From contig CAMWKY010000147.1 of assembly GCA_947174965.1 (NCBI GenBank), positions 1-5,861 of the forward strand: DNA of 5,861 nucleotides, written 5' to 3'. The position numbers and the translations under genes are program-made. Shown one piece after another: positions 1-5,861 of this stretch; within the stretch, counting starts at the first letter, position 1; each line of letters opens with the position of its first letter. The notes under the pieces were generated by a model that was given only the letters and a program-made list of their open reading frames with translations, was not told the origin of the DNA and made no database searches. Origin of the DNA: an uncultured Ruminococcus sp. GTDB lineage: Bacteria; Bacillota; Clostridia; Oscillospirales; Ruminococcaceae.

Positions 1-12
1 TCCTAAATGTTT

Positions 13-42
13 CTGAAATTATTGTAACACAAATTTTATAAT
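13..42 (+). promoter_or_regulatory. Candidate rightward early promoter for the transposition operon
   Basis: A perfect TATAAT (37-42) is preceded after 18 nt by CTGAAA (13-18), four of six matches to the -35 consensus. Transcription would begin near 49 and give a leader of about 60 nt before the transposase start. It interleaves with the leftward promoter, so RNA polymerase could not occupy both. A weaker -35 than the opposing promoter fits a lysogenic default, which is inference. Confidence 0.5.
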
Positions 43-49
43 TTGTCAA
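21..49 (-). promoter_or_regulatory. Strong leftward sigma-A promoter, probably for a divergent repressor gene
   Basis: Read on the minus strand, a perfect TTGACA -35 box (44-49) is followed by a 17-nt spacer and a TACAAT -10 box (21-26), five of six matches to consensus. A run of seven A on the same strand (54-60) lies just upstream of the -35 and could act as an UP element. Transcription would start near position 14 and leave the window to the left. In Mu-like phages the repressor is transcribed divergently from the transposition operon, so a repressor is the expected target, but that gene is not visible here. Confidence 0.75.
29..46. promoter_or_regulatory. Candidate operator, inverted repeat between the two promoters
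   Basis: ACAAAT (29-34) and ATTTGT (41-46) are perfect inverted repeats separated by 6 nt. The palindrome covers the spacer of the leftward promoter and the -10 of the rightward one. Its position and size suit a dimeric repressor or Ner-like regulator. A/T richness makes a chance palindrome possible. Confidence 0.4.
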
Positions 50-62
50 GAACTTTTTTTGC

Positions 63-108: not shown

Positions 109-2100
109 TTGGACTATTTATCAACAAAACAAGTTGCTGAGTTAAAAGGCTGTAAAGAACGATATATACAAAAACTTTGCAAGGACGGCAAGATAGAGGC
201 GATTCAGGTAACAAGCAGCAAGGACAGAATGAAATACCTGATACCTGTTTCGGCACTATCTGAAGACTTACAAGCAAAATATTATAAGCATAAACGAACA
301 GAAGCAGGAATTGCACCCGAAAAAAACGAATCTGAAAACAGTTCAGAAACAGCGTTTAAATACCGTTTAAAAGGTGTTTCAAAGGCGTTTGAGGAATTTT
401 CAGACACGGAGCGTATGAAAATAAAGTTCTGGATTGATTTGCTCAATGAATGGCAGGCAGAACGTTCCAGACGTAAGGACAAGACCGAGTTTGACAAGAT
501 ATTTGTCGCTCATCAGAAATATATCCACCCTGAAATCGAAATCAGCACGGATATTCTTTACCGAAAATATGCTGCTTATAAAAATAAGTGCTACGGAGAT
601 TTGCTTGATAAGCGTGGTGGCTGGAACAGAGGAAAAAGTAAACTCGAAGACGACAGTATCATCTGGCAGAACTTCCTGAGCGTATACCTTAACCAGAGCA
701 AGCCAAATATTGCACTCTGCTACAGAATGGTAACAGCATATATAGCTGAGGAACACCCTGAACTTGTTGAAGAAATCCCGTCAGTATCAAGTTTCAGAAG
801 AAAAATTGAAACCCTGCCTTTTGCGGTTCTGGACTACTCACATAATGGTGAAAAGGCGATGCGCGACCACTGTACTCCGTCCGCAATCCGTGACAAAAGC
901 GATATTTACGCAAATGACGGCTGGGTTATGGACAATTACACATTCGACGTTATAGTCAAGCAGGACGACAACTCAAAAAAGACAAGGAGACTTTACATAA
1001 CAACAGTTCTTGATGTAAAATCAAATGTCCTTGTCGGCTGGAACATCACCGAAAGCCCAGACAGCAATTCAACGCTTGATGCACTGTACTTCGCAATACT
1101 GAGGTACGGTATTCCAAAAAGGCTGTATTTTGACAACGGACGTGAATTTACCACACTTGATATTGCAGGTGAAAAACGCAACAGAAAAGTTGCAAAAAAC
1201 AAGAAAGGCGATATTCCGCTTACAATAGCAGAAAAGCTTGGTATAGAACTGATTTTTGCAAAGGTTACAAATGCTCAGGCGAAAGTCGTGGAGCGTATTC
1301 ACAGAGTAATCAAGGAGCAGTATTGTACAGCACAGTACGGCTACTGCGGAGGAAATGTTGTGGAACGTCCCGAAATACTCAAAACAAACATCAAAAACGG
1401 TACTGTTGAAACAGAGGCAGAACTACGCAGGACATTTGCTGATTTTGCCGACAATATATACAACGTCCAGCCTTACGGCAGCAGTGAAGCGAAGTATAAA
1501 AATATGCCGCTGTGCGATGTCTGGAACGCTTCAATCAAGGAAACCGAGTTCAGAAAGGCAAAAAAAGACGTTCTCAACCTGCTTATGATGAGAAATGCAG
1601 GATTCCAGACAATCAAAAAGAACGGCGTATTTATATGGTATCACAATGAAAAAATATGGTACTATGATAAAAATATCACATGGAAGCATATTGGTGAAAA
1701 AGTCTGTGTCAGATATGACAGAAACAACCCATCAGAAGTCAGACTTTATGATAAAGATGACAGGTATCTGTTCAGCTGGCATTGTGCAGACTGGCTTATG
1801 CTGAAATATTTCAGTGCAAGTGAAGAAGAACTTGCAGAACTCGGACGTGGAAAAGCAGATGTTGACAGACAGATAAAGGCACGTGCAAAAGAACTCAAAG
1901 GCAATGGTGTCCTTACACCAAAAAGCGGTCTGGAGTACATTGCAAGCCAGAATACAGGCAAATTCAATATACAGCAACCAAAAAATATAACTATTGTGAC
2001 AGCAAATGAAGAACCTGAAGAACGTATGGCAGCCGGTGCTGAGAACATAGTAATCGACAGGAAAAAAATGATAAAAAATGCAGAAATGAGGAAAAAATAA
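109..2100 (+). CDS. A: Mu-type DDE transposase (MuA-like)
   Basis: This is the DNA strand-transfer enzyme that binds phage ends and joins them to target DNA. TTG at 109 is chosen because AAAGGAGG (95-102) sits 6 nt upstream. The resulting protein is 663 residues, the length I recall for phage Mu A; an upstream TTG at 43 lacks a Shine-Dalgarno. Residues about 3-60 form a helix-turn-helix (STKQVAELKG...RYIQKLCKDGKI). The RNase H-like core carries D275 (VMDNYTFDV), D342 (YFDNGREF) and E395 (AKVVERIHR). These align with MuA D269, D336 and E392, with the same 67-residue D-D spacing. Residues about 507-558 resemble the MuA beta-barrel domain. The tail is very basic and ends in RKK. ATPase B follows without a gap. 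No frameshift or missing catalytic residue is seen, so it is probably active. Confidence 0.95.
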   Translation: MDYLSTKQVAELKGCKERYIQKLCKDGKIEAIQVTSSKDRMKYLIPVSALSEDLQAKYYKHKRTEAGIAPEKNESENSSETAFKYRLKGVSKAFEEFSDTERMKIKFWIDLLNEWQAERSRRKDKTEFDKIFVAHQKYIHPEIEISTDILYRKYAAYKNKCYGDLLDKRGGWNRGKSKLEDDSIIWQNFLSVYLNQSKPNIALCYRMVTAYIAEEHPELVEEIPSVSSFRRKIETLPFAVLDYSHNGEKAMRDHCTPSAIRDKSDIYANDGWVMDNYTFDVIVKQDDNSKKTRRLYITTVLDVKSNVLVGWNITESPDSNSTLDALYFAILRYGIPKRLYFDNGREFTTLDIAGEKRNRKVAKNKKGDIPLTIAEKLGIELIFAKVTNAQAKVVERIHRVIKEQYCTAQYGYCGGNVVERPEILKTNIKNGTVETEAELRRTFADFADNIYNVQPYGSSEAKYKNMPLCDVWNASIKETEFRKAKKDVLNLLMMRNAGFQTIKKNGVFIWYHNEKIWYYDKNITWKHIGEKVCVRYDRNNPSEVRLYDKDDRYLFSWHCADWLMLKYFSASEEELAELGRGKADVDRQIKARAKELKGNGVLTPKSGLEYIASQNTGKFNIQQPKNITIVTANEEPEERMAAGAENIVIDRKKMIKNAEMRKK

Positions 2101-3015
2101 ATGTATACACAGGAACAGCTTGAACTTCTTGAAAAATTGGAAGTTCTTCAAAAAGAAAGAAAGCTCACCCAGAACGGTGTTGCAGAACTTGTGGGGGTAT
2201 CAAAATCAGCTCTTTCACAGGCAAGAACCGGAAAACTTGAAAAAACACAGAAATTTTTTGATACACTTGCAGGCTATTTTGAGGTCAAGGAAAAAGCAAA
2301 ACTTACATACTCCGAACTGAAATATGTACCGACAAGCATTTCAGAGCATATTTACAATGTAATCAGCTTATGTCAGATAAAGGGCGGACTTGCTGTTGTT
2401 GTGGGCGATGCAGGTATCGGCAAATCAAAAGCAATACAGAAATTCACCACTGACAATCCGACAAGCAGCTTTTCAATAACGGTCAATCCATGTTTTTCCA
2501 ATATAAAAAGTATGCTGAAACTAATTGCAAACACAATAGGAGCTGTTCCGAAGCGTTCGAGCGACGAACTCTGGCTTTCAATTGCGGACAAGCTCACAGA
2601 CGGAACAGTGCTTATTTTCGATGAGGCACAGCATCTTAATATGAAAACTATCGAAGTGCTTAGAAGTTTTTCCGATTACTTCAACGACAGACATCAGACA
2701 CTCGGAATCTGCTTTATCGGAAATATTGAGATAATCGAAAGATTCGACAGTAAAAAGTTTGAACAGATTATAAACCGCACAAAACAAAGTCCCGTATTTC
2801 ACAAATCTGACATCACCCATGATGATATAAAGAAAATTTTCCCGATTCTTGAAGCAGAAAACATGGAAAAGGAAATTGATTATCTTTATAAGGTCACACA
2901 GACTGAACAGGCACTAAGAGGTGCAATAAACCTTTTTTCAAACGCCTATGACAACGAAAACATCACATACGAGGGACTTGCCGCTATGGCAGATTACATG
3001 GGTATTAAAGTATGA
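2101..3015 (+). CDS. B: MuB-like AAA+ ATPase, transposition target selector
   Basis: MuB-family proteins bind DNA in an ATP-dependent way, deliver target DNA to the transposase and activate it. The protein has 304 residues, close to MuB (312). Residues about 10-65 are a lambda-repressor-like helix-turn-helix (LTQNGVAELVGVSKSALSQ). Walker A is G102-S109 (GDAGIGKS), Walker B is LIFDEAQ with D174 and E175, a sensor-1 Asn is N208 (FIGN), and R226 (INRT) is a candidate arginine finger. The ATG directly follows the transposase TAA, with GAGG 9 nt upstream. Its stop overlaps the next start (ATGA), so A, B and the next gene are probably translationally coupled. ATP-binding residues look intact. TniB and TnsC are relatives, but size, N-terminal HTH and MuA-like partner favour MuB. 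Confidence 0.93.
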   Translation: MYTQEQLELLEKLEVLQKERKLTQNGVAELVGVSKSALSQARTGKLEKTQKFFDTLAGYFEVKEKAKLTYSELKYVPTSISEHIYNVISLCQIKGGLAVVVGDAGIGKSKAIQKFTTDNPTSSFSITVNPCFSNIKSMLKLIANTIGAVPKRSSDELWLSIADKLTDGTVLIFDEAQHLNMKTIEVLRSFSDYFNDRHQTLGICFIGNIEIIERFDSKKFEQIINRTKQSPVFHKSDITHDDIKKIFPILEAENMEKEIDYLYKVTQTEQALRGAINLFSNAYDNENITYEGLAAMADYMGIKV

Positions 3016-3398
3016 AGAAAACGAATAAAAAAACAAAAATCCTGCTCCATGCAGTTATATCAGTGGCTGTGACAACACAGCTGCTGAGCATACTCTGCTT
3101 CAGGCACTCGCTTACAATCGGCGGAGAAATACTTATACCCGTACTTGTACTGCTCATCAGGCAGGCGGCAATAAAAATTACGGATATATTCACCGGAATC
3201 AGAGACGAATTAAGAAATATGGAGGAAAACCGAATGAAATACCCGACAAAGCATCAGAGAATACTTCTCAAAAAATACGGACTTAATCCGAAAAAATGGA
3301 TTATCACGTCCGAAAACATCATGGAAATGAAAGCCGTCCACAGATATAGTGGAATTGTATGTGTACTCAATAAAAAGAGAGGTACGGACAATGAATAA
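3012..3398 (+). CDS. Small membrane protein fused in frame to a DUF6906-like C-terminus
   Basis: I do not recognise the N-terminal part. After a Lys-rich start it has two hydrophobic stretches (residues about 9-29 and 38-55), probably two membrane helices, followed by a charged stretch (about 58-74). Residues 75-128 resemble small phage proteins of the DUF6906 type, which share a pattern like KYGLNPKKW followed by a short beta-rich tail. The start ATG overlaps the stop of the ATPase gene (ATGA). A strong GGAGG (3221-3225) lies 8 nt before an in-frame ATG at 3234, so the C-terminal part is probably also made alone. The long form may thus be a genuine fusion, or a small membrane gene whose stop was lost. 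Function is unknown; the place just after A-B suggests an early accessory role. Confidence 0.6.
   Translation: MKKTNKKTKILLHAVISVAVTTQLLSILCFRHSLTIGGEILIPVLVLLIRQAAIKITDIFTGIRDELRNMEENRMKYPTKHQRILLKKYGLNPKKWIITSENIMEMKAVHRYSGIVCVLNKKRGTDNE
3234..3398 (+). CDS. DUF6906-like small phage protein, internal start of the longer frame
   Basis: This 54-residue product starts at an internal ATG with an excellent GGAGG site 8 nt upstream (3221-3225), stronger than anything before the long form's ATG at 3012. It reads MKYPTKHQRILLKKYGLNPK and continues with KKW and a short tail rich in Val, Ile and Lys. That pattern is what I recall for DUF6906 proteins of Firmicutes phages, which are normally stand-alone and about this size. 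No function is established that I know of. It overlaps the next gene by 8 nt. The family call is from memory of the pattern, not from a search. Confidence 0.55.
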   Translation: MKYPTKHQRILLKKYGLNPKKWIITSENIMEMKAVHRYSGIVCVLNKKRGTDNE

Positions 3399-3615
3399 CG
3401 AAAAATGCAGATTCAGTTCCTATGGAGGATATTGCAGAATACTTTCAGTCAAATCATGCGACGGCATGAACGAGGACTGCCCGTTCTATAAAACAGAAAA
3501 GCAGTTCCGTGAATCAGCAGACCGTGCAATACTTATAAACCGCAGAAAATGCAGATGTGAAAGCTGTACATATACCACAAAACCATGTCAGCTGTCTGTA
3601 TTCTATAAGAAATAA
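3391..3615 (+). CDS. Small Cys-rich protein, possible zinc-binding
   Basis: This 74-residue protein carries nine cysteines. They include CRF near the start, YCRI, SCDGM, DCPFYKT and a CRCESC cluster followed by a last Cys in KPCQL. Such spacing suggests metal binding, and the CPFYKT(E)KQF pattern is common in small Firmicutes phage proteins, but I know no function for it. The ATG at 3391 is chosen because GAGAGG (3377-3382) lies 8 nt upstream. An upstream in-frame ATG at 3349 has no good site. It overlaps the preceding stop by 8 nt, which suggests coupled translation. Confidence 0.75.
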   Translation: MNNEKCRFSSYGGYCRILSVKSCDGMNEDCPFYKTEKQFRESADRAILINRRKCRCESCTYTTKPCQLSVFYKK

Positions 3616-3638
3616 CAGTCAGAACAGAGGTAAGAAAA

Positions 3639-3827
3639 ATGATTACAGAAATACTTGAAGCTTTTGAAACCAAATTCAACAGAACTTTCAGAAATATCGA
3701 AGAAATAAGACAGGAATACTCAACAGTTGAAATACTTGATATATGGCTTGAATACGAAGGAATCGTCGGATATACACGCAACATAATTGATTTACTCGGC
3801 GAATGTGAAGTCTATATCGAAGAATAG
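3639..3827 (+). CDS. Small acidic protein of unknown function
   Basis: This 62-residue protein starts at ATG 3639 with CAGAGG (3625-3630) 8 nt upstream. It is strongly acidic and appears helical (ITEILEAFETKFNRTFRNIE, then further Glu/Ile-rich stretches). It has no Cys pair, signal peptide or membrane segment besides short hydrophobic patches. I do not recognise the family. Its TAG stop (3825-3827) shares its last base with the first base of the ribozyme's stem II, so cleavage at 3853 would leave its mRNA with a 3' hairpin right after the stop codon. Confidence 0.7.
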   Translation: MITEILEAFETKFNRTFRNIEEIRQEYSTVEILDIWLEYEGIVGYTRNIIDLLGECEVYIEE

Positions 3828-3891
3828 CCGAAACAGCGGACAAGCCCGCTGTCTGCCGTGAACGGTCGCACGGTACTGATGAGGCAGACCA
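3827..3891 (+). ncRNA. Type II hammerhead self-cleaving ribozyme, copy 1
   Basis: All hammerhead core parts occur in type II order. GCC (3827-3829) begins stem II, followed by GAA (3830-3832). Stem III is ACAGCGG (3833-3839) with CCGCTGT (3846-3852), 7 perfect pairs around a 6-nt loop. The cleavage-site C is 3853 (GUC), so the cut falls between 3853 and 3854. Stem I is TGCCGTG (3854-3860) with CACGGTA (3869-3875), including one G-U pair. CTGATGA is 3876-3882, and GGC (3883-3885) closes a 3-bp stem II. Loop I has GGTC (3864-3867), complementary to GACC (3887-3890), a probable pseudoknot that would compensate for the short stem II. It lies between the genes ending at 3827 and starting at 3909. 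Confidence 0.93.
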
Positions 3892-3908
3892 GAAAAGAGG
3901 TGTTGAAA

Positions 3909-4100
3909 TTGAAAATCACAATCGAAGCAGAAGCAAAAGAAATTGCTGATATTTTGTCGGCATTGAAAAGCCAGACATTTTCCAAAGATATTAAGCTGTT
4001 TCCACAAAAGAAAAGCTATATGTCAGGAGAATTAAGAAATCTTCTTGATTCCAGTGTAAGAAAAGCAATGAAAGAACTTAATGAGCAATTTAAAACATGA
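3909..4100 (+). CDS. Small protein of unknown function between ribozymes 1 and 2
   Basis: The start is TTG 3909, preceded by AAGAGGTG (3895-3902) at 6 nt; the TTG at 3903 is too close to it. The open frame extends upstream through the ribozyme from GTG 3858, but that GTG lies in stem I and has no ribosome binding site. The 63-residue product begins MKITIEAEAKEIADIL, a pattern I have seen in small Clostridia phage proteins without known function. It continues with a Lys-rich middle and an amphipathic helix at the C-terminus. Ribozyme cleavage at 3853 and 4192 would place this gene alone on a 339-nt RNA with a 55-nt 5' leader. Confidence 0.7.
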   Translation: MKITIEAEAKEIADILSALKSQTFSKDIKLFPQKKSYMSGELRNLLDSSVRKAMKELNEQFKT

Positions 4101-4104
4101 AAAT

Positions 4105-4143
4105 GAAGTGAAAGAAACAGACAATAAAAATTTGTTTCACTTC
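4105..4143 (+). repeat. Inverted repeat (hairpin) after the 3909-4100 gene
   Basis: GAAGTGAAA (4105-4113) and TTTCACTTC (4135-4143) are perfect complements of 9 bp around a 21-nt A-rich loop. After one G-G mismatch, three more A-T pairs are possible. A competing 6-bp pairing, GAAACA (4114-4119) with TGTTTC (4133-4138), shares bases with it. It starts 4 nt after the stop codon and has no U-tract, so termination is unlikely. It may protect a 3' end or influence folding of the ribozyme that begins 15 nt later. Confidence 0.55.
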
Positions 4144-4158
4144 AATAGTTCTGAAACA

Positions 4159-4230
4159 GCCGAAACAGCGGAGAATATCCTGCTCCGCTGTCTGCCGTGA
4201 ACGGTCGCACGGTACTGATGAGGCAGACCA
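4159..4230 (+). ncRNA. Type II hammerhead self-cleaving ribozyme, copy 2
   Basis: Stem II 5' strand GCC is 4159-4161 and GAA is 4162-4164. Stem III is 9 perfect pairs, ACAGCGGAG (4165-4173) with CTCCGCTGT (4183-4191), two more than copy 1 with both strands changed to match. The cleavage C is 4192, so the cut is 4192/4193. Stem I is 4193-4199 with 4208-4214, CTGATGA is 4215-4221 and stem II 3' strand GGC is 4222-4224. The pseudoknot candidate is GGTC (4203-4206) with GACC (4226-4229). From the 3' strand of stem III to the end it is identical to copy 1. It lies 58 nt after one gene and 19 nt before the likely GTG of the next. Confidence 0.93.
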
Positions 4231-4249
4231 AGAAAGCGTGGTGAATGAT

Positions 4250-4603
4250 GTGAACTGGACAGAAGATGATGAAATCAGATGCGAAACTGAACGTAAGGAA
4301 CAAAAACGAAAAATCATACAGAAAAAACTTGATGAGGCACAGCACAGGTATGATGAAGCAGAACGCAACTATCAGGACACAGGTTCATCAAGTGCTATGA
4401 GGACGATGCACAGAAATGAAGATATAATGATGATTTGCAGACTTGCACTTCAGGCACTTGACAATGTATGCGGAACGTGCGAAAATCGCAGACGCAACGC
4501 TAAATATGCTGTAAATAAATATAAAGAGGCAAAAGAATCGGGCAATAATGATGAACTTAATTTTGACAATATAATCGCTGATTTTATAGACTTACAGTAT
4601 TGA
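4250..4603 (+). CDS. Charged coiled-coil protein between ribozymes 2 and 3
   Basis: The start is uncertain among GTG codons at 4238, 4241 and 4250. I choose 4250 because a weak Shine-Dalgarno-like GTGGTGA (4238-4244) lies 5 nt before it, matching the layout after the other two ribozymes. This gives 117 residues. Residues about 10-45 are a heptad-like, highly charged helix (KKLDEAQHRYDEAERNY), probably a coiled coil. A second helical part carries VCGTCENRRR, a single CxxC, then an acidic C-terminus. I do not recognise the family. Its TGA stop (4601-4603) is 4 nt before ribozyme 3. Cleavage at 4192 and 4640 would free it as a 448-nt single-gene RNA with a 57-nt leader. Confidence 0.7.
   Translation: MNWTEDDEIRCETERKEQKRKIIQKKLDEAQHRYDEAERNYQDTGSSSAMRTMHRNEDIMMICRLALQALDNVCGTCENRRRNAKYAVNKYKEAKESGNNDELNFDNIIADFIDLQY
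4563..4590 (+). promoter_or_regulatory. Possible internal promoter upstream of ribozyme 3
   Basis: A perfect TTGACA (4563-4568) is followed after 16 nt by TATAGA (4585-4590), four of six matches to the -10 consensus. It lies inside the end of the coding region, so it may be chance. If active, RNA would start near 4597 and begin almost directly with ribozyme 3, which would then remove a leader of about 44 nt. Confidence 0.3.
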
Positions 4604-4607
4604 AACA

Positions 4608-4678
4608 GCCGAAACAGCGGAAAAATTCTACTCCGCTGTCTGCCGTGAACGGTCACACGGTACTGATGAGGCAGACCA
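4608..4678 (+). ncRNA. Type II hammerhead self-cleaving ribozyme, copy 3
   Basis: GCC is 4608-4610 and GAA 4611-4613. Stem III is 8 perfect pairs, ACAGCGGA (4614-4621) with TCCGCTGT (4632-4639), around a 10-nt loop unlike the other copies. The cleavage C is 4640, with the cut at 4640/4641. Stem I is 4641-4647 with 4656-4662, CTGATGA is 4663-4669 and GGC is 4670-4672. The pseudoknot candidate is GGTC (4651-4654) with GACC (4674-4677). The only difference from copies 1 and 2 in the 3' half is A at 4655 instead of G, the last base of loop I, outside every pairing. It sits between the genes ending at 4603 and starting at 4703. Confidence 0.93.
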
Positions 4679-4702
4679 AATAAATAAGCGGAGGTGATGA
4701 AA

Positions 4703-4975
4703 GTGAAACCAGTTGATGCAGACGAACTGTTCCAGAAAACTATATACATTATCAATGATGGAACAGATGATAAAGTGTTGAGAATTGTAGTTGGAATCTC
4801 GCTTGCTGAAACCGTCGAAGCCAGACCAGTTAAGCATGGCAAATGGATAAAACGTTCCGGGAACAGATATATGTTCTGTATTTATGACTGTTCTGAATGC
4901 AGATGTCCTAACCCAATAAAAACAAAATACTGTCCGAACTGCGGAGTTGAAATGAAGGAGGAAAACAATGACTAA
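4703..4975 (+). CDS. Small zinc-ribbon protein
   Basis: This 90-residue protein probably starts at GTG 4703, since GCGGAGGTGA (4689-4697) lies 5 nt upstream. The ATG at 4697 overlaps that site and cannot use it. It begins MKPVDADELF, seen in many small Clostridia phage proteins. After VEARPVKHGKWI it has a Cys-rich C-terminus: cysteines at CIYDCSECRC, then YCPNCGVEM. The CxxC...CxxC layout (CSEC, CPNC) fits a zinc ribbon. Its partner is unknown; nucleic-acid or protein binding is a guess. It is the first gene after ribozyme 3, and the next gene's ATG overlaps its stop by 8 nt. Confidence 0.8.
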   Translation: MKPVDADELFQKTIYIINDGTDDKVLRIVVGISLAETVEARPVKHGKWIKRSGNRYMFCIYDCSECRCPNPIKTKYCPNCGVEMKEENND

Positions 4976-5141
4976 CAATGAAATCTATGAAATTGCTCTG
5001 AAAATAGAGAACGGTGAAACTCTCAGCAATGAAGAAAAGCTGAAACTCATATTCATGCTTGGCGAACTGGCAGGATATAAGTCAAAGGAAGCAAAGAACA
5101 GGACATACAGGCATAATTATGGAGGTGATAAAAGTGAGTAA
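4968..5141 (+). CDS. Very small hypothetical protein (57 residues)
   Basis: ATG 4968 has an excellent AAGGAGG (4955-4961) 6 nt upstream, which makes this small frame believable. The product starts MTNNEIYEIALKIENGETLS and continues with a Lys/Leu-rich helix, then a basic tail ending near NYGGDKSE. I do not recognise a family. It overlaps the previous stop by 8 nt and the next start by 8 nt. Its last codons double as the next gene's ribosome binding site (GGAGGTGA, 5121-5128), a sign of coupled translation. Confidence 0.75.
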   Translation: MTNNEIYEIALKIENGETLSNEEKLKLIFMLGELAGYKSKEAKNRTYRHNYGGDKSE

Positions 5142-5313
5142 AGATATTGAATTTCAGACAGAATACGGCAAAGACGGAAAACAGTATCTTGTAGTCAGAA
5201 AAAGAGGCAGGCTCGCTCGTGACGATATGTGCGAGATTATCAGGCAGTACGAACTTGCAAGATTACGCCGTGCATCAGAACCGACAGACCAGAACAACGG
5301 TTATTTCAAATAA
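5134..5313 (+). CDS. Small basic hypothetical protein
   Basis: GTG 5134 is selected because GGAGGTGA (5121-5128) lies 5 nt upstream. The frame is open further upstream, to 5059, but no site there supports a start. The product has 59 residues. It begins MSKDIEFQTEYGKDGKQYLV, which suggests a short beta hairpin, then has an Arg-rich helix (RKRGRLARDD, IIRQYELARLRRA). The net positive charge could suit nucleic-acid binding, but there is no motif that shows it. Family unknown. Confidence 0.7.
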   Translation: MSKDIEFQTEYGKDGKQYLVVRKRGRLARDDMCEIIRQYELARLRRASEPTDQNNGYFK

Positions 5314-5330
5314 AAAACGGAGGTAAACCT

Positions 5331-5621
5331 ATGAAACTCACAAAAAAACAGGAAAAACAGCTTCTTGAAAAAGTCAGAGGAATCAAGGCTTTAGAAGCGC
5401 AGAAGAAAGAAATTGAAAACGAGATTGATGTACTTAAAGGCGAAATCAAAGATTTCATGACAAAGAAAAACATTTCAGAGTTTGCAGTTGATATTTTTAC
5501 AGTCCGCTACACTGATACAGCATCATCTAATTTTGACACAACAGCATTCAAGGTAACCCATGAGGAACTCTATAAGCAGTACCTTAAAACTAAAACTTAC
5601 AAGCGTTTTTCGATTACATGA
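5331..5621 (+). CDS. Small coiled-coil phage protein with a conserved C-terminal pattern
   Basis: ATG 5331 has GGAGGT (5319-5324) 6 nt upstream; the longer frame back to 5229 runs over the previous gene and has no such site. The 96-residue protein has an N-terminal charged coiled coil (residues about 3-45, KKQEKQLLEKV and QKKEIENEIDVLKGE). It is followed by a beta-rich part and a tail with SNFDTTAFK, HEELYKQYLK and KRFSI. That combination is familiar from small proteins in the early regions of Firmicutes phages, often beside recombination genes. I know of no assigned function. It is not the Gam nuclease inhibitor as far as I can tell, although it lies where Mu carries gam. Confidence 0.8.
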   Translation: MKLTKKQEKQLLEKVRGIKALEAQKKEIENEIDVLKGEIKDFMTKKNISEFAVDIFTVRYTDTASSNFDTTAFKVTHEELYKQYLKTKTYKRFSIT

Positions 5622-5685
5622 CAATATCTGCAAAAAACTCATGGTTCTGTAAAATCAGAAGTCCTGAAAACTGAAAAAAGTGAAC

Positions 5686-5713
5686 AGCTCCGGCGGAGAA
5701 AATCGTCGGGGCT
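5686..5713 (+). repeat. Hairpin in the 5622-5744 gap
   Basis: AGCTCCGGCG (5686-5695) pairs with CGTCGGGGCT (5704-5713) in ten consecutive pairs, two of them G-U, around an 8-nt loop (GAGAAAAT). No U-tract follows, so an intrinsic terminator is unlikely. It is the main structure in this 123-nt gap, which holds no ribozyme core and no gene with a plausible start. It may be an mRNA processing or stabilising hairpin ahead of the next gene. Confidence 0.45.
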
Positions 5714-5744
5714 ATTCCTGATTATAATGAACAGAGGCGGTATT

Positions 5745-5861
5745 ATGGCAAAAATAACCCGAAAACTTTATGCACTGGCGACAGAACTGAATCTTGTGGA
5801 GCGTGGCAATCCTGAAGACCCTTTTCATCAGATTGTGTACAGAATCACAGGCAAAGAACAC
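5745..5861 (+). CDS. Probable GemA/gp16-family phage protein, N-terminal part
   Basis: The frame runs off the right edge after 39 codons. ATG 5745 follows GAGGCGG (5734-5740) by 4 nt. The visible part includes ITRKLYALATELNLVE, then a short insertion and FHQIVYRITGKEH. GemA/gp16 proteins (DUF1018) of Mu-like phages have an N-terminal helix like IYALAKELGL followed by a LHxIVxxxTGKxS motif, so this fits well. Mu gp16 (GemA) is an early gene downstream of B, which matches the location. The call is based on 39 residues and remembered patterns, so another small phage family is possible. Confidence 0.55.
   Translation, partial: MAKITRKLYALATELNLVERGNPEDPFHQIVYRITGKEH

What the first reader, a model, noticed from the sequence alone, without database searches (positions are those of the whole stretch)
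3827..4678. Three tandem type II hammerhead ribozymes separate small genes in one Mu-like early operon
Three elements with complete hammerhead cores lie in direct repeat, each exactly between two genes, all on the coding strand. Cleavage would cut the polycistronic RNA after 3853, 4192 and 4640 and release single-gene RNAs of 339 and 448 nt. Type II hammerheads near clostridial prophage genes are known; repeated use as intercistronic processing sites in one operon is what I would call unusual. It would be a protein-free way to uncouple expression of small phage genes.
Basis: partly seen in the sequence, partly recalled or inferred. Interest (0 to 1): 0.93.

Follow-up and report, generated by a model that had tools for sequence, protein, structure and literature searches.

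The report
Ribozymes that split phage gene messages
Three copies of a known RNA-cutting motif, the hammerhead ribozyme, sit between the small early genes of a Mu-like prophage, where they would likely cut one long message into single-gene pieces, and in related prophages the same slots instead hold a knotted RNA that matched no catalogued family in our searches and likely does a similar job.

Summary
Three type II hammerhead ribozymes (RF02276, 56-59 bits, gathering score 37) lie in direct repeat at 3826-3893, 4158-4232 and 4607-4680, on the coding strand between genes downstream of MuA and MuB. Each has the full core, three stems and a GGUC/GACC pseudoknot that covaries across 125 hammerheads. 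The predicted cuts (3853, 4192, 4640) are correct; cleavage is untested here. That multiple prophage hammerheads may cut transcripts into single-gene mRNAs was published in 2011 with in vitro and E. coli data (PMC3088659), so this is a new member of a known kind. Two things go further. The hammerhead is usually fused to the upstream stop codon: 101 of 126 viral and 30 of 37 same-genus or same-order copies start within -2 to +6 nt of the stop of a long open frame, against about 5% of random positions. And at the slot before the gene preceding MuA, 25 informative loci carry a hammerhead (7), a covarying ~40-nt pseudoknot RNA without Rfam match (17) or neither (1), never both. The window's closest relative has hammerheads and a divergent pseudoknot in one early region. 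This pseudoknot is a candidate second RNA-processing element, possibly a new ribozyme.

The parts
3826..3893 (+). Type II hammerhead 1; predicted cut 3853/3854; stem II 3827-3829 with 3883-3885; pseudoknot loop I 3864-3867 (GGUC) with tail 3887-3890 (GACC)
   Evidence: RF02276, 58.8 bits; three-stem minimum-energy fold; pseudoknot covaries in relatives
4158..4232 (+). Type II hammerhead 2; predicted cut 4192/4193; pseudoknot 4203-4206 with 4226-4229
   Evidence: RF02276, 58.5 bits; fold
4607..4680 (+). Type II hammerhead 3; predicted cut 4640/4641; pseudoknot 4651-4654 with 4674-4677
   Evidence: RF02276, 56.4 bits; fold
3639..3827 (+). 62-aa gene of unknown function ('c2'); its TAG stop (3825-3827) overlaps hammerhead 1
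   Evidence: no family; found in 13 of 125 same-genus genomes, the own one included
3909..4100 (+). 63-aa gene between hammerheads 1 and 2; ribosome-binding site AGAGGTG at 3896-3902, TTG start
   Evidence: no Pfam or NCBIfam family; weak PHROG of unknown function on the longer reading 3903-4100 (E 2.4e-4)
4104..4144 (+). Inverted repeat (GAAGTGAAA...TTTCACTTC) between the stop at 4100 and hammerhead 2
   Evidence: fold
4250..4603 (+). 117-aa gene between hammerheads 2 and 3 ('c16')
   Evidence: a hammerhead follows it in 6 of 6 matches of at least 63% identity, this one included, and in 0 of 7 more distant matches (27-52%)
4703..4975 (+). 90-aa gene after hammerhead 3; replaced by a different 225-aa gene in the closest relative found (L032)
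   Evidence: blastn: homology to L032 ends at 4706 and resumes at 4955
109..2100 (+). Mu-like transposase A
   Evidence: phrog_310 E 2.2e-95; Mu-transpos_C, rve, HTH_Tnp_Mu_2, DDE_2
2101..3015 (+). MuB-like transposition ATPase
   Evidence: phrog_296 E 1.2e-44; AAA_22

Best explanation
Window 3826-3893, 4158-4232 and 4607-4680 encode three pseudoknotted type II hammerhead ribozymes that are predicted to cut the early prophage RNA after 3853, 4192 and 4640 and would thereby likely turn a polycistronic message into single-gene mRNAs. Shown here: the motifs, their fold, the conserved pseudoknot, the exact intercistronic placement and, for two of the three, the stop codon at the element's edge. 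Inferred: co-transcription, cleavage in the cell and its effect. Each cut would leave the upstream mRNA ending in the stem III hairpin with a 2',3'-cyclic phosphate, and the downstream mRNA starting with a 5'-OH and the 7-bp stem I hairpin 55-62 nt before its start codon, so both halves keep a whole reading frame, a ribosome-binding site and a structured end. Where the stop codon touches the 5' strand of stem II, a terminating ribosome would cover the catalytic strand, so cleavage likely follows the end of translation of the upstream gene. The likely purpose is to separate the decay and dosage of neighbouring small phage genes.
For: Model hits 19-22 bits above the gathering score. The three-stem fold is the minimum-energy fold in 3 of 3 copies. 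In 125 unique hammerheads (from 38 same-genus and same-order rows and 92 rows of 80 IMG/VR contigs) all four pseudoknot pairs form in 98, shuffled mean 34, maximum 45. Differences from the sister copies lie only in loops, stem III length and a tail end. Of 92 viral hammerheads 61 lie cleanly between two genes on their own strand, against 2.7% of random segments. A frame of at least 40 codons stops within -2..+6 nt of the hammerhead in 101 of 126 viral and 30 of 37 same-genus or same-order copies; random positions 330 of 5979 and 82 of 1706. Promoter- and terminator-like sites at 3000-5800 are at chance level (8 vs 6.9; 2 vs 2.1). Tandem prophage hammerheads from other bacteria cut in vitro, and a triple one also in E. 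coli (PMC3088659). A pseudoknot hammerhead cuts at 16 per min in 1 mM Mg2+ and 2 M NaCl (PMC11300833, passages).
Against: No RNA or activity data for this locus. Hammerhead 2 starts 57 nt after the stop, so the stop fusion is not universal. 31 of 92 viral copies were not cleanly intergenic and co-directional by my simple gene caller. Four of 18 consensus-matching hammerheads tested by Perreault et al. showed no cleavage in vitro. Tight packing of phage genes alone could bring stop codon and ribozyme together; I ran no control for that.
Confidence: 0.75

Rival explanations
1. The hammerheads matter mainly as DNA: near-identical linkers between genes at which homologous recombination swaps single-gene cassettes among phages.
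For: The gene after hammerhead 3 differs between the window and its 95.9%-identical relative, with breakpoints at the start codon (4706) and before the next gene (4955). The same upstream gene family meets different downstream families across a hammerhead, and the reverse. The three window copies match each other at 64-69 bases.
Against: Hammerhead junctions were not clearly more variable than others: pooled same-partner rates were 11 of 32 and 11 of 53, against 282 of 571 and 282 of 545 at other junctions, but per-family means were not lower (permutation 0.79 and 0.63). A pure linker would not need compensatory changes in the stems and pseudoknot.
Confidence: 0.12
2. The elements are kept as structured mRNA ends or ribosome-termination elements, and cleavage in the cell is slow or incidental.
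For: Stop codons usually abut them, and in related prophages the same slots hold a structured RNA that is not a hammerhead.
Against: The catalytic core is kept in all three copies and in the sister's three, and relatives cut in vitro and in E. coli.
Confidence: 0.1
3. They are passengers left by duplication inside the prophage, with no present function.
For: The three copies are nearly identical.
Against: A hammerhead stays after the 117-aa gene in 6 of 6 matches of at least 63% identity, and pairing is kept across 125 hammerheads.
Confidence: 0.04

Closest known systems
Type II hammerhead ribozymes, Rfam RF02276 (Perreault et al. 2011, PMC3088659)
   Same: Core, open stem II, closed stems I and III, loop I-tail pseudoknot, prophage location
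   Different: Nothing found in structure; stem II is 3 bp here
Clustered prophage hammerheads of Clostridium scindens, Azorhizobium caulinodans and Agrobacterium tumefaciens (PMC3088659, section 6 and Figure 3 legend; the figure itself was not seen)
   Same: Several hammerheads in one region flanking single genes; the A. tumefaciens set is also triple
   Different: Other hosts and genes; here in a Mu-like early region. The words 'stop codon' occur 0 times in that main text, so the stop-codon fusion does not seem to be described there
Pseudoknot hammerhead crystal structure (PMC11300833, abstract and passages)
   Same: [quoted passage not shown] same catalytic class
   Different: The crystal construct was designed to recognise a target RNA; six-pair pseudoknot there, four pairs here

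Membership tests
Hammerhead_II (RF02276) | Covariance-model score above gathering (37 bits) | tested here: met
   58.8, 58.5 and 56.4 bits
Hammerhead_II (RF02276) | Catalytic core CUGANGA, GAAA, UH at the cut | tested here: met
   CUGAUGA, GAAAC, GUC in 3 of 3 copies
Hammerhead_II (RF02276) | Stems I and III closed by loops, stem II open | tested here: met
   Minimum-energy folds of 3 of 3 copies
Hammerhead_II (RF02276) | Pseudoknot between loop I and the tail after stem II | tested here: met
   GGUC/GACC in 3 of 3 by sequence; covariation 98 of 125 vs shuffled maximum 45
Hammerhead_II (RF02276) | Self-cleavage | not testable with these tools
   Needs in vitro transcription
Clustered prophage hammerheads (PMC3088659) | Two or more hammerheads flanking single genes or short gene blocks of a prophage | tested here: met
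   Three hammerheads flanking two single genes, downstream of MuA and MuB
Clustered prophage hammerheads (PMC3088659) | Transcript cut into unit-length mRNAs | not testable with these tools
   No RNA data
Pseudoknot element of sister prophages: any Rfam 15 family | Covariance-model match | tested here: not met
   No match over the element in L181, L182, L183 at E<=0.5 or at gathering score in L021, L040, L042, L043, L044 and L269-L296; only sub-gathering snoRNA or lncRNA matches (E 3.2-7.2) in L283 1300-1500 at E<=10

The most novel reading that the evidence does not exclude
The hammerhead slots of these prophages take either of two RNAs: a hammerhead, or a ~40-nt H-type pseudoknot (P1 of 4-5 pairs, a UUCURA loop, a second helix of 5-7 pairs, tail AUCCCA) that matched no Rfam 15 family. 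It sits in the same stop-codon-adjacent place on the coding strand, before or after orthologous genes, and its helices are replaced with pairing kept. The bold reading is that it is a new class of small self-cleaving ribozyme (or another RNA-cutting signal) that stands in for the hammerhead, so the phage is selecting for a cut, not for a particular ribozyme.
Probability: 0.3. Interest if true: 0.9.

Novelty: new member of a known kind. Interest (0 to 1): 0.6.

Why it matters
Perreault et al. left the purpose of phage hammerheads open in 2011, and I found no later answer in the searches listed. The near-fusion to stop codons and the exchange with a second structured RNA at orthologous slots turn that into direct tests: compare cutting, mRNA ends and expression for hammerhead, pseudoknot and empty versions of one slot. 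If the pseudoknot also cuts, it would be a new natural ribozyme class and would show that cutting between phage genes is itself the selected trait.

Tried and rejected
Cassette-shuffling by DNA recombination at hammerheads: attractive from the swap after hammerhead 3, but the junction test was inconclusive, so it is a rival only.

Repeated switching of the slot before the gene preceding MuA: the tree of that gene puts the 7 hammerhead rows on one side of a branch (support 96/98), so this slot shows one switch, not many.

Pair counts on the larger alignment A3 were not made, because 25 of its 26 rows came from a parse that demanded full pairing; the fair test is A1. A1's rows were found with patterns for the hairpin only; these fix two G-C pairs of P1 but not the 3' strand of the second helix.

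A stretch at window 8-60 that can be drawn loosely like the sister pseudoknot (TCTGA with AT-rich complements) was dropped: the model gives no hit in the window at E<=1 and AT-rich pairing is easy by chance. A weak pairing of the GACC tail with the ribosome-binding site in the folds of the downstream fragments was dropped: 3-4 bp, and the fragments fold no better than shuffles.

An extra hammerhead-like string inside the 225-aa gene of L032 from a loose regular expression has no Rfam hit. Named families for the small genes between the hammerheads: none useful. Phage records: one match, MT835795.1, 21% of the query covered at 82.2%, unannotated.

Full report
What was checked. The window is one whole 5861-base contig (C147) of a 2.33 Mb draft genome in 371 contigs.

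The three elements are real. A scan of the window against all Rfam 15 families gives three Hammerhead_II hits 19-22 bits above the gathering score, all on the + strand; the other five matches at E<=10 are below their gathering scores. They are the only ones found in the genome draft. Each folds into the three-stem hammerhead as its minimum-energy structure. The loop of stem I carries GGUC and the tail after stem II carries GACC in all three, the pseudoknot that Perreault et al. describe for type II hammerheads.

Selection, not chance. Stem I pairs 1-6 form in 122 to 125 of 125 and the seventh in 81. All four pseudoknot pairs form in 98 of 125 against a shuffled mean of 34 and maximum of 45; partners include GACC/GGUC, GCCC/GGGC, CGCC/GGCG and GAUC/GAUC. 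Between the window and the closest relative found (L032, 95.9% identical over 3078-4706) the hammerheads differ only in loop bases, the length of stem III and one tail base.

Placement. In the window the TAG stop of the 62-aa gene shares two bases with hammerhead 1; hammerhead 3 starts 3 nt after a stop; hammerhead 2 starts 57 nt after one, with a hairpin in the gap. Start codons follow 15, 17 and 22 nt after the three elements. This is general. Among 126 viral hammerheads from the 120 contigs (6 more were too near a contig edge), 101 start within -2 to +6 nt of the stop of a frame of at least 40 codons (25 at -2, 30 at -1), against 330 of 5979 random positions on the same strands; among 37 same-genus and same-order hammerheads (1 more near an edge) it is 30, against 82 of 1706. 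By gene of 92 viral copies are cleanly between two co-directional genes, against 2.7% of random segments; the other 31 are overlaps, strand conflicts or contig ends in my simple gene caller, not examined one by one. The base before stem II is A in 106 of 125 copies and is often the stop codon's own base. Cleavage there cannot break the upstream frame, and a terminating ribosome would cover the strand that carries GAAAC; that last step is inference from recalled ribosome footprints. I ran no control that separates selected fusion from tight gene packing. Promoter-like and terminator-like sites between 3000 and 5800 are at chance level, which fits one long transcript but does not prove it.

Comparison with what is known. 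Perreault et al. (PMC3088659; abstract, section 6, first part of the Discussion and passages seen; [quoted passage not shown] tumefaciens set cuts in E. coli. They left the purpose open. A designed pseudoknot hammerhead has been crystallised and cuts at 16 per min in 1 mM Mg2+ and 2 M NaCl (PMC11300833; abstract and passages). The present case is a new member of that kind. Within the genus 22 of 125 genomes, the own one included, have at least one hammerhead, up to five.

Gene exchange. The 90-aa gene after hammerhead 3 is replaced by an unrelated 225-aa gene in L032, with homology ending at the start codon and resuming before the next gene. In L040 a member of that 225-aa family lies between two hammerheads. 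The 117-aa gene before hammerhead 3 is followed by a hammerhead in 6 of 6 matches of at least 63% identity, the window included, and in none of 7 more distant matches. Whether hammerheads are preferred joints is unresolved: pooled partner conservation is lower at hammerhead junctions (11 of 32 and 11 of 53 against 282 of 571 and 282 of 545), but family-averaged values are not (permutation 0.79 and 0.63; 35 hammerhead and 347 other junctions).

A second RNA in the same slots. Of 14 loci with the 62-aa gene, 7 have a hammerhead directly after it, 3 have instead a conserved ~40-nt element, 3 have another gene first, and 1 is at a contig edge. The element reads A-GGCU-UCUGA-ACGGUUG-AGCCU-n-CAGCCGU-AUCCCA: a hairpin whose loop pairs downstream, an H-type pseudoknot. 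It was collected by patterns covering the hairpin only, which fix two G-C pairs of P1; the downstream partner strand was not in the pattern. In the 23 sequences so found 98.9% of cells pair, against 12-52% when the partner is slid by 1-3 columns; four pairs change on both sides; covariation score 0.172 against a shuffled 0.083. More distant members replace whole helices with pairing kept: P1 AACGU/ACGUU with ACCGUUG/CAGCGGU or GCCAUUG/CAGUGGC, and AGUG/CACU with AGGGC/GCCCU, while the UUCURA loop and the AUYCCA tail stay, with a few departures. Not every divergent row pairs fully: L253 has an A-C mismatch, L265 needs a bulge, and L032 keeps three pairs of P1. No Rfam family matches it. A model of it (R1) finds 43 hits in 21 of 125 same-genus genomes; 5 of 394 genomes of the order sample including the own one, of which one, G260, is a CRISPR spacer that matches the element and not an element in place; and 1 of 391 of the class sample, the own one. 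It is a narrow family. The window itself has none at E<=1; its genome has one at C127:1796-1843.

Same slot, one or the other. The gene just before MuA (about 111-123 aa) was found 28 times in 22 of 125 genomes. Three loci were set aside (L269, contig edge; L289, partial match inside a 253-aa frame; L296, partial match with an internal stop). Of the other 25, the space before the gene holds a hammerhead in 7, the pseudoknot in 17 (16 by model at E<=0.1, one of them cut by a contig edge and five of them weak, E 1e-4 to 3e-3; plus L279, cut by an edge and read by eye) and neither in 1 (L290). None holds both at that place. On the tree of this gene the hammerhead rows lie on one side of a branch (support 96/98), so this slot records a single switch. 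A third gene, 'c56', is followed by a hammerhead in L021 and by the pseudoknot in L040, L220 and L229. Loci L021, L040, L042, L043 and L044 carry both kinds, and the closest relative of the window, L032, has a divergent pseudoknot (E 2.8e-4) before the gene preceding MuA and three hammerheads after MuB. Ten genomes have both kinds, 3.7 expected (P 4e-4, from the lists), which may only mean that they carry such phages. Of 24 distinct, fully pairing pseudoknots tested (1 more near an edge), 20 lie within -2 to +25 nt of the stop of a frame of at least 40 codons, against 143 of 1118 random positions. One IMG/VR contig (L231) has three in 2.3 kb, placed between genes like the hammerheads of the window.

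Reading. The safest statement is that these prophages keep a structured, mostly stop-codon-adjacent RNA at recurring intercistronic slots, that in the window all three are hammerheads and should cut, and that the other RNA likely has an overlapping function. Whether it cuts is unknown. I found no description of it, but beyond Rfam I ran only six paper searches in open-licence PMC papers, seen as listings except for the two papers named, so it may be in print elsewhere.

Noticed in passing
L181:1684-1731, L183:1678-1725, L042:1550-1597 (minus), L283:1338-1386, L231 (three copies), G000:C127:1796-1843: A covarying ~40-nt H-type pseudoknot RNA with no Rfam 15 match, on the coding strand mostly just after stop codons, in slots where other prophages have hammerheads.
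   Followed up: yes
L266 (G260:C16:38597-38629): In another genus of the same family a CRISPR array (repeats ATTTCAACTCACACGCCCCGTGTGGGGCGTGAC) has a spacer that matches this pseudoknot element, which fits its being part of phages that infect this family.
   Followed up: no
window 4703-4975 vs L032 7208-7885: The gene after hammerhead 3 is swapped for an unrelated 225-aa gene in a relative that is 95.9% identical over 3078-4706; breakpoints at the start codon and before the next gene.
   Followed up: partly
L272, L279, L283-L288, L295: stretch between the pseudoknot tail and the gene before MuA: By eye, a further conserved ~90-100 nt stretch (CAGCAGnAAUACACAGCAGUCACCGACCAACGAG...) follows the pseudoknot; other loci have only a short GAAA-loop hairpin there. 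L270 and L274 have a similar stretch after a hammerhead. Possibly another structured leader RNA.
   Followed up: no
L032:11318-11402, L036:1206-1290 (minus), L045:9567-9650, L046:7652-7738: RAGATH-28 RNA (RF03052) in four of these prophage regions.
   Followed up: no
L033, L035, L036, L038, L039, L045, L048, L052: A second recurring hammerhead slot, right before a 78-aa AbrB/MazE-like gene, in 8 of 9 loci with that gene (not L047).
   Followed up: partly
L290 upstream of position 1073: The one locus with neither element before the MuA-preceding gene has a plain inverted repeat there (GAAACUCCGUU...AACGGAGUUUC, by eye).
   Followed up: no
window 4104-4144: Imperfect 13-bp inverted repeat between the stop at 4100 and hammerhead 2, without a T run after it.
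   Followed up: partly
   Followed up: no
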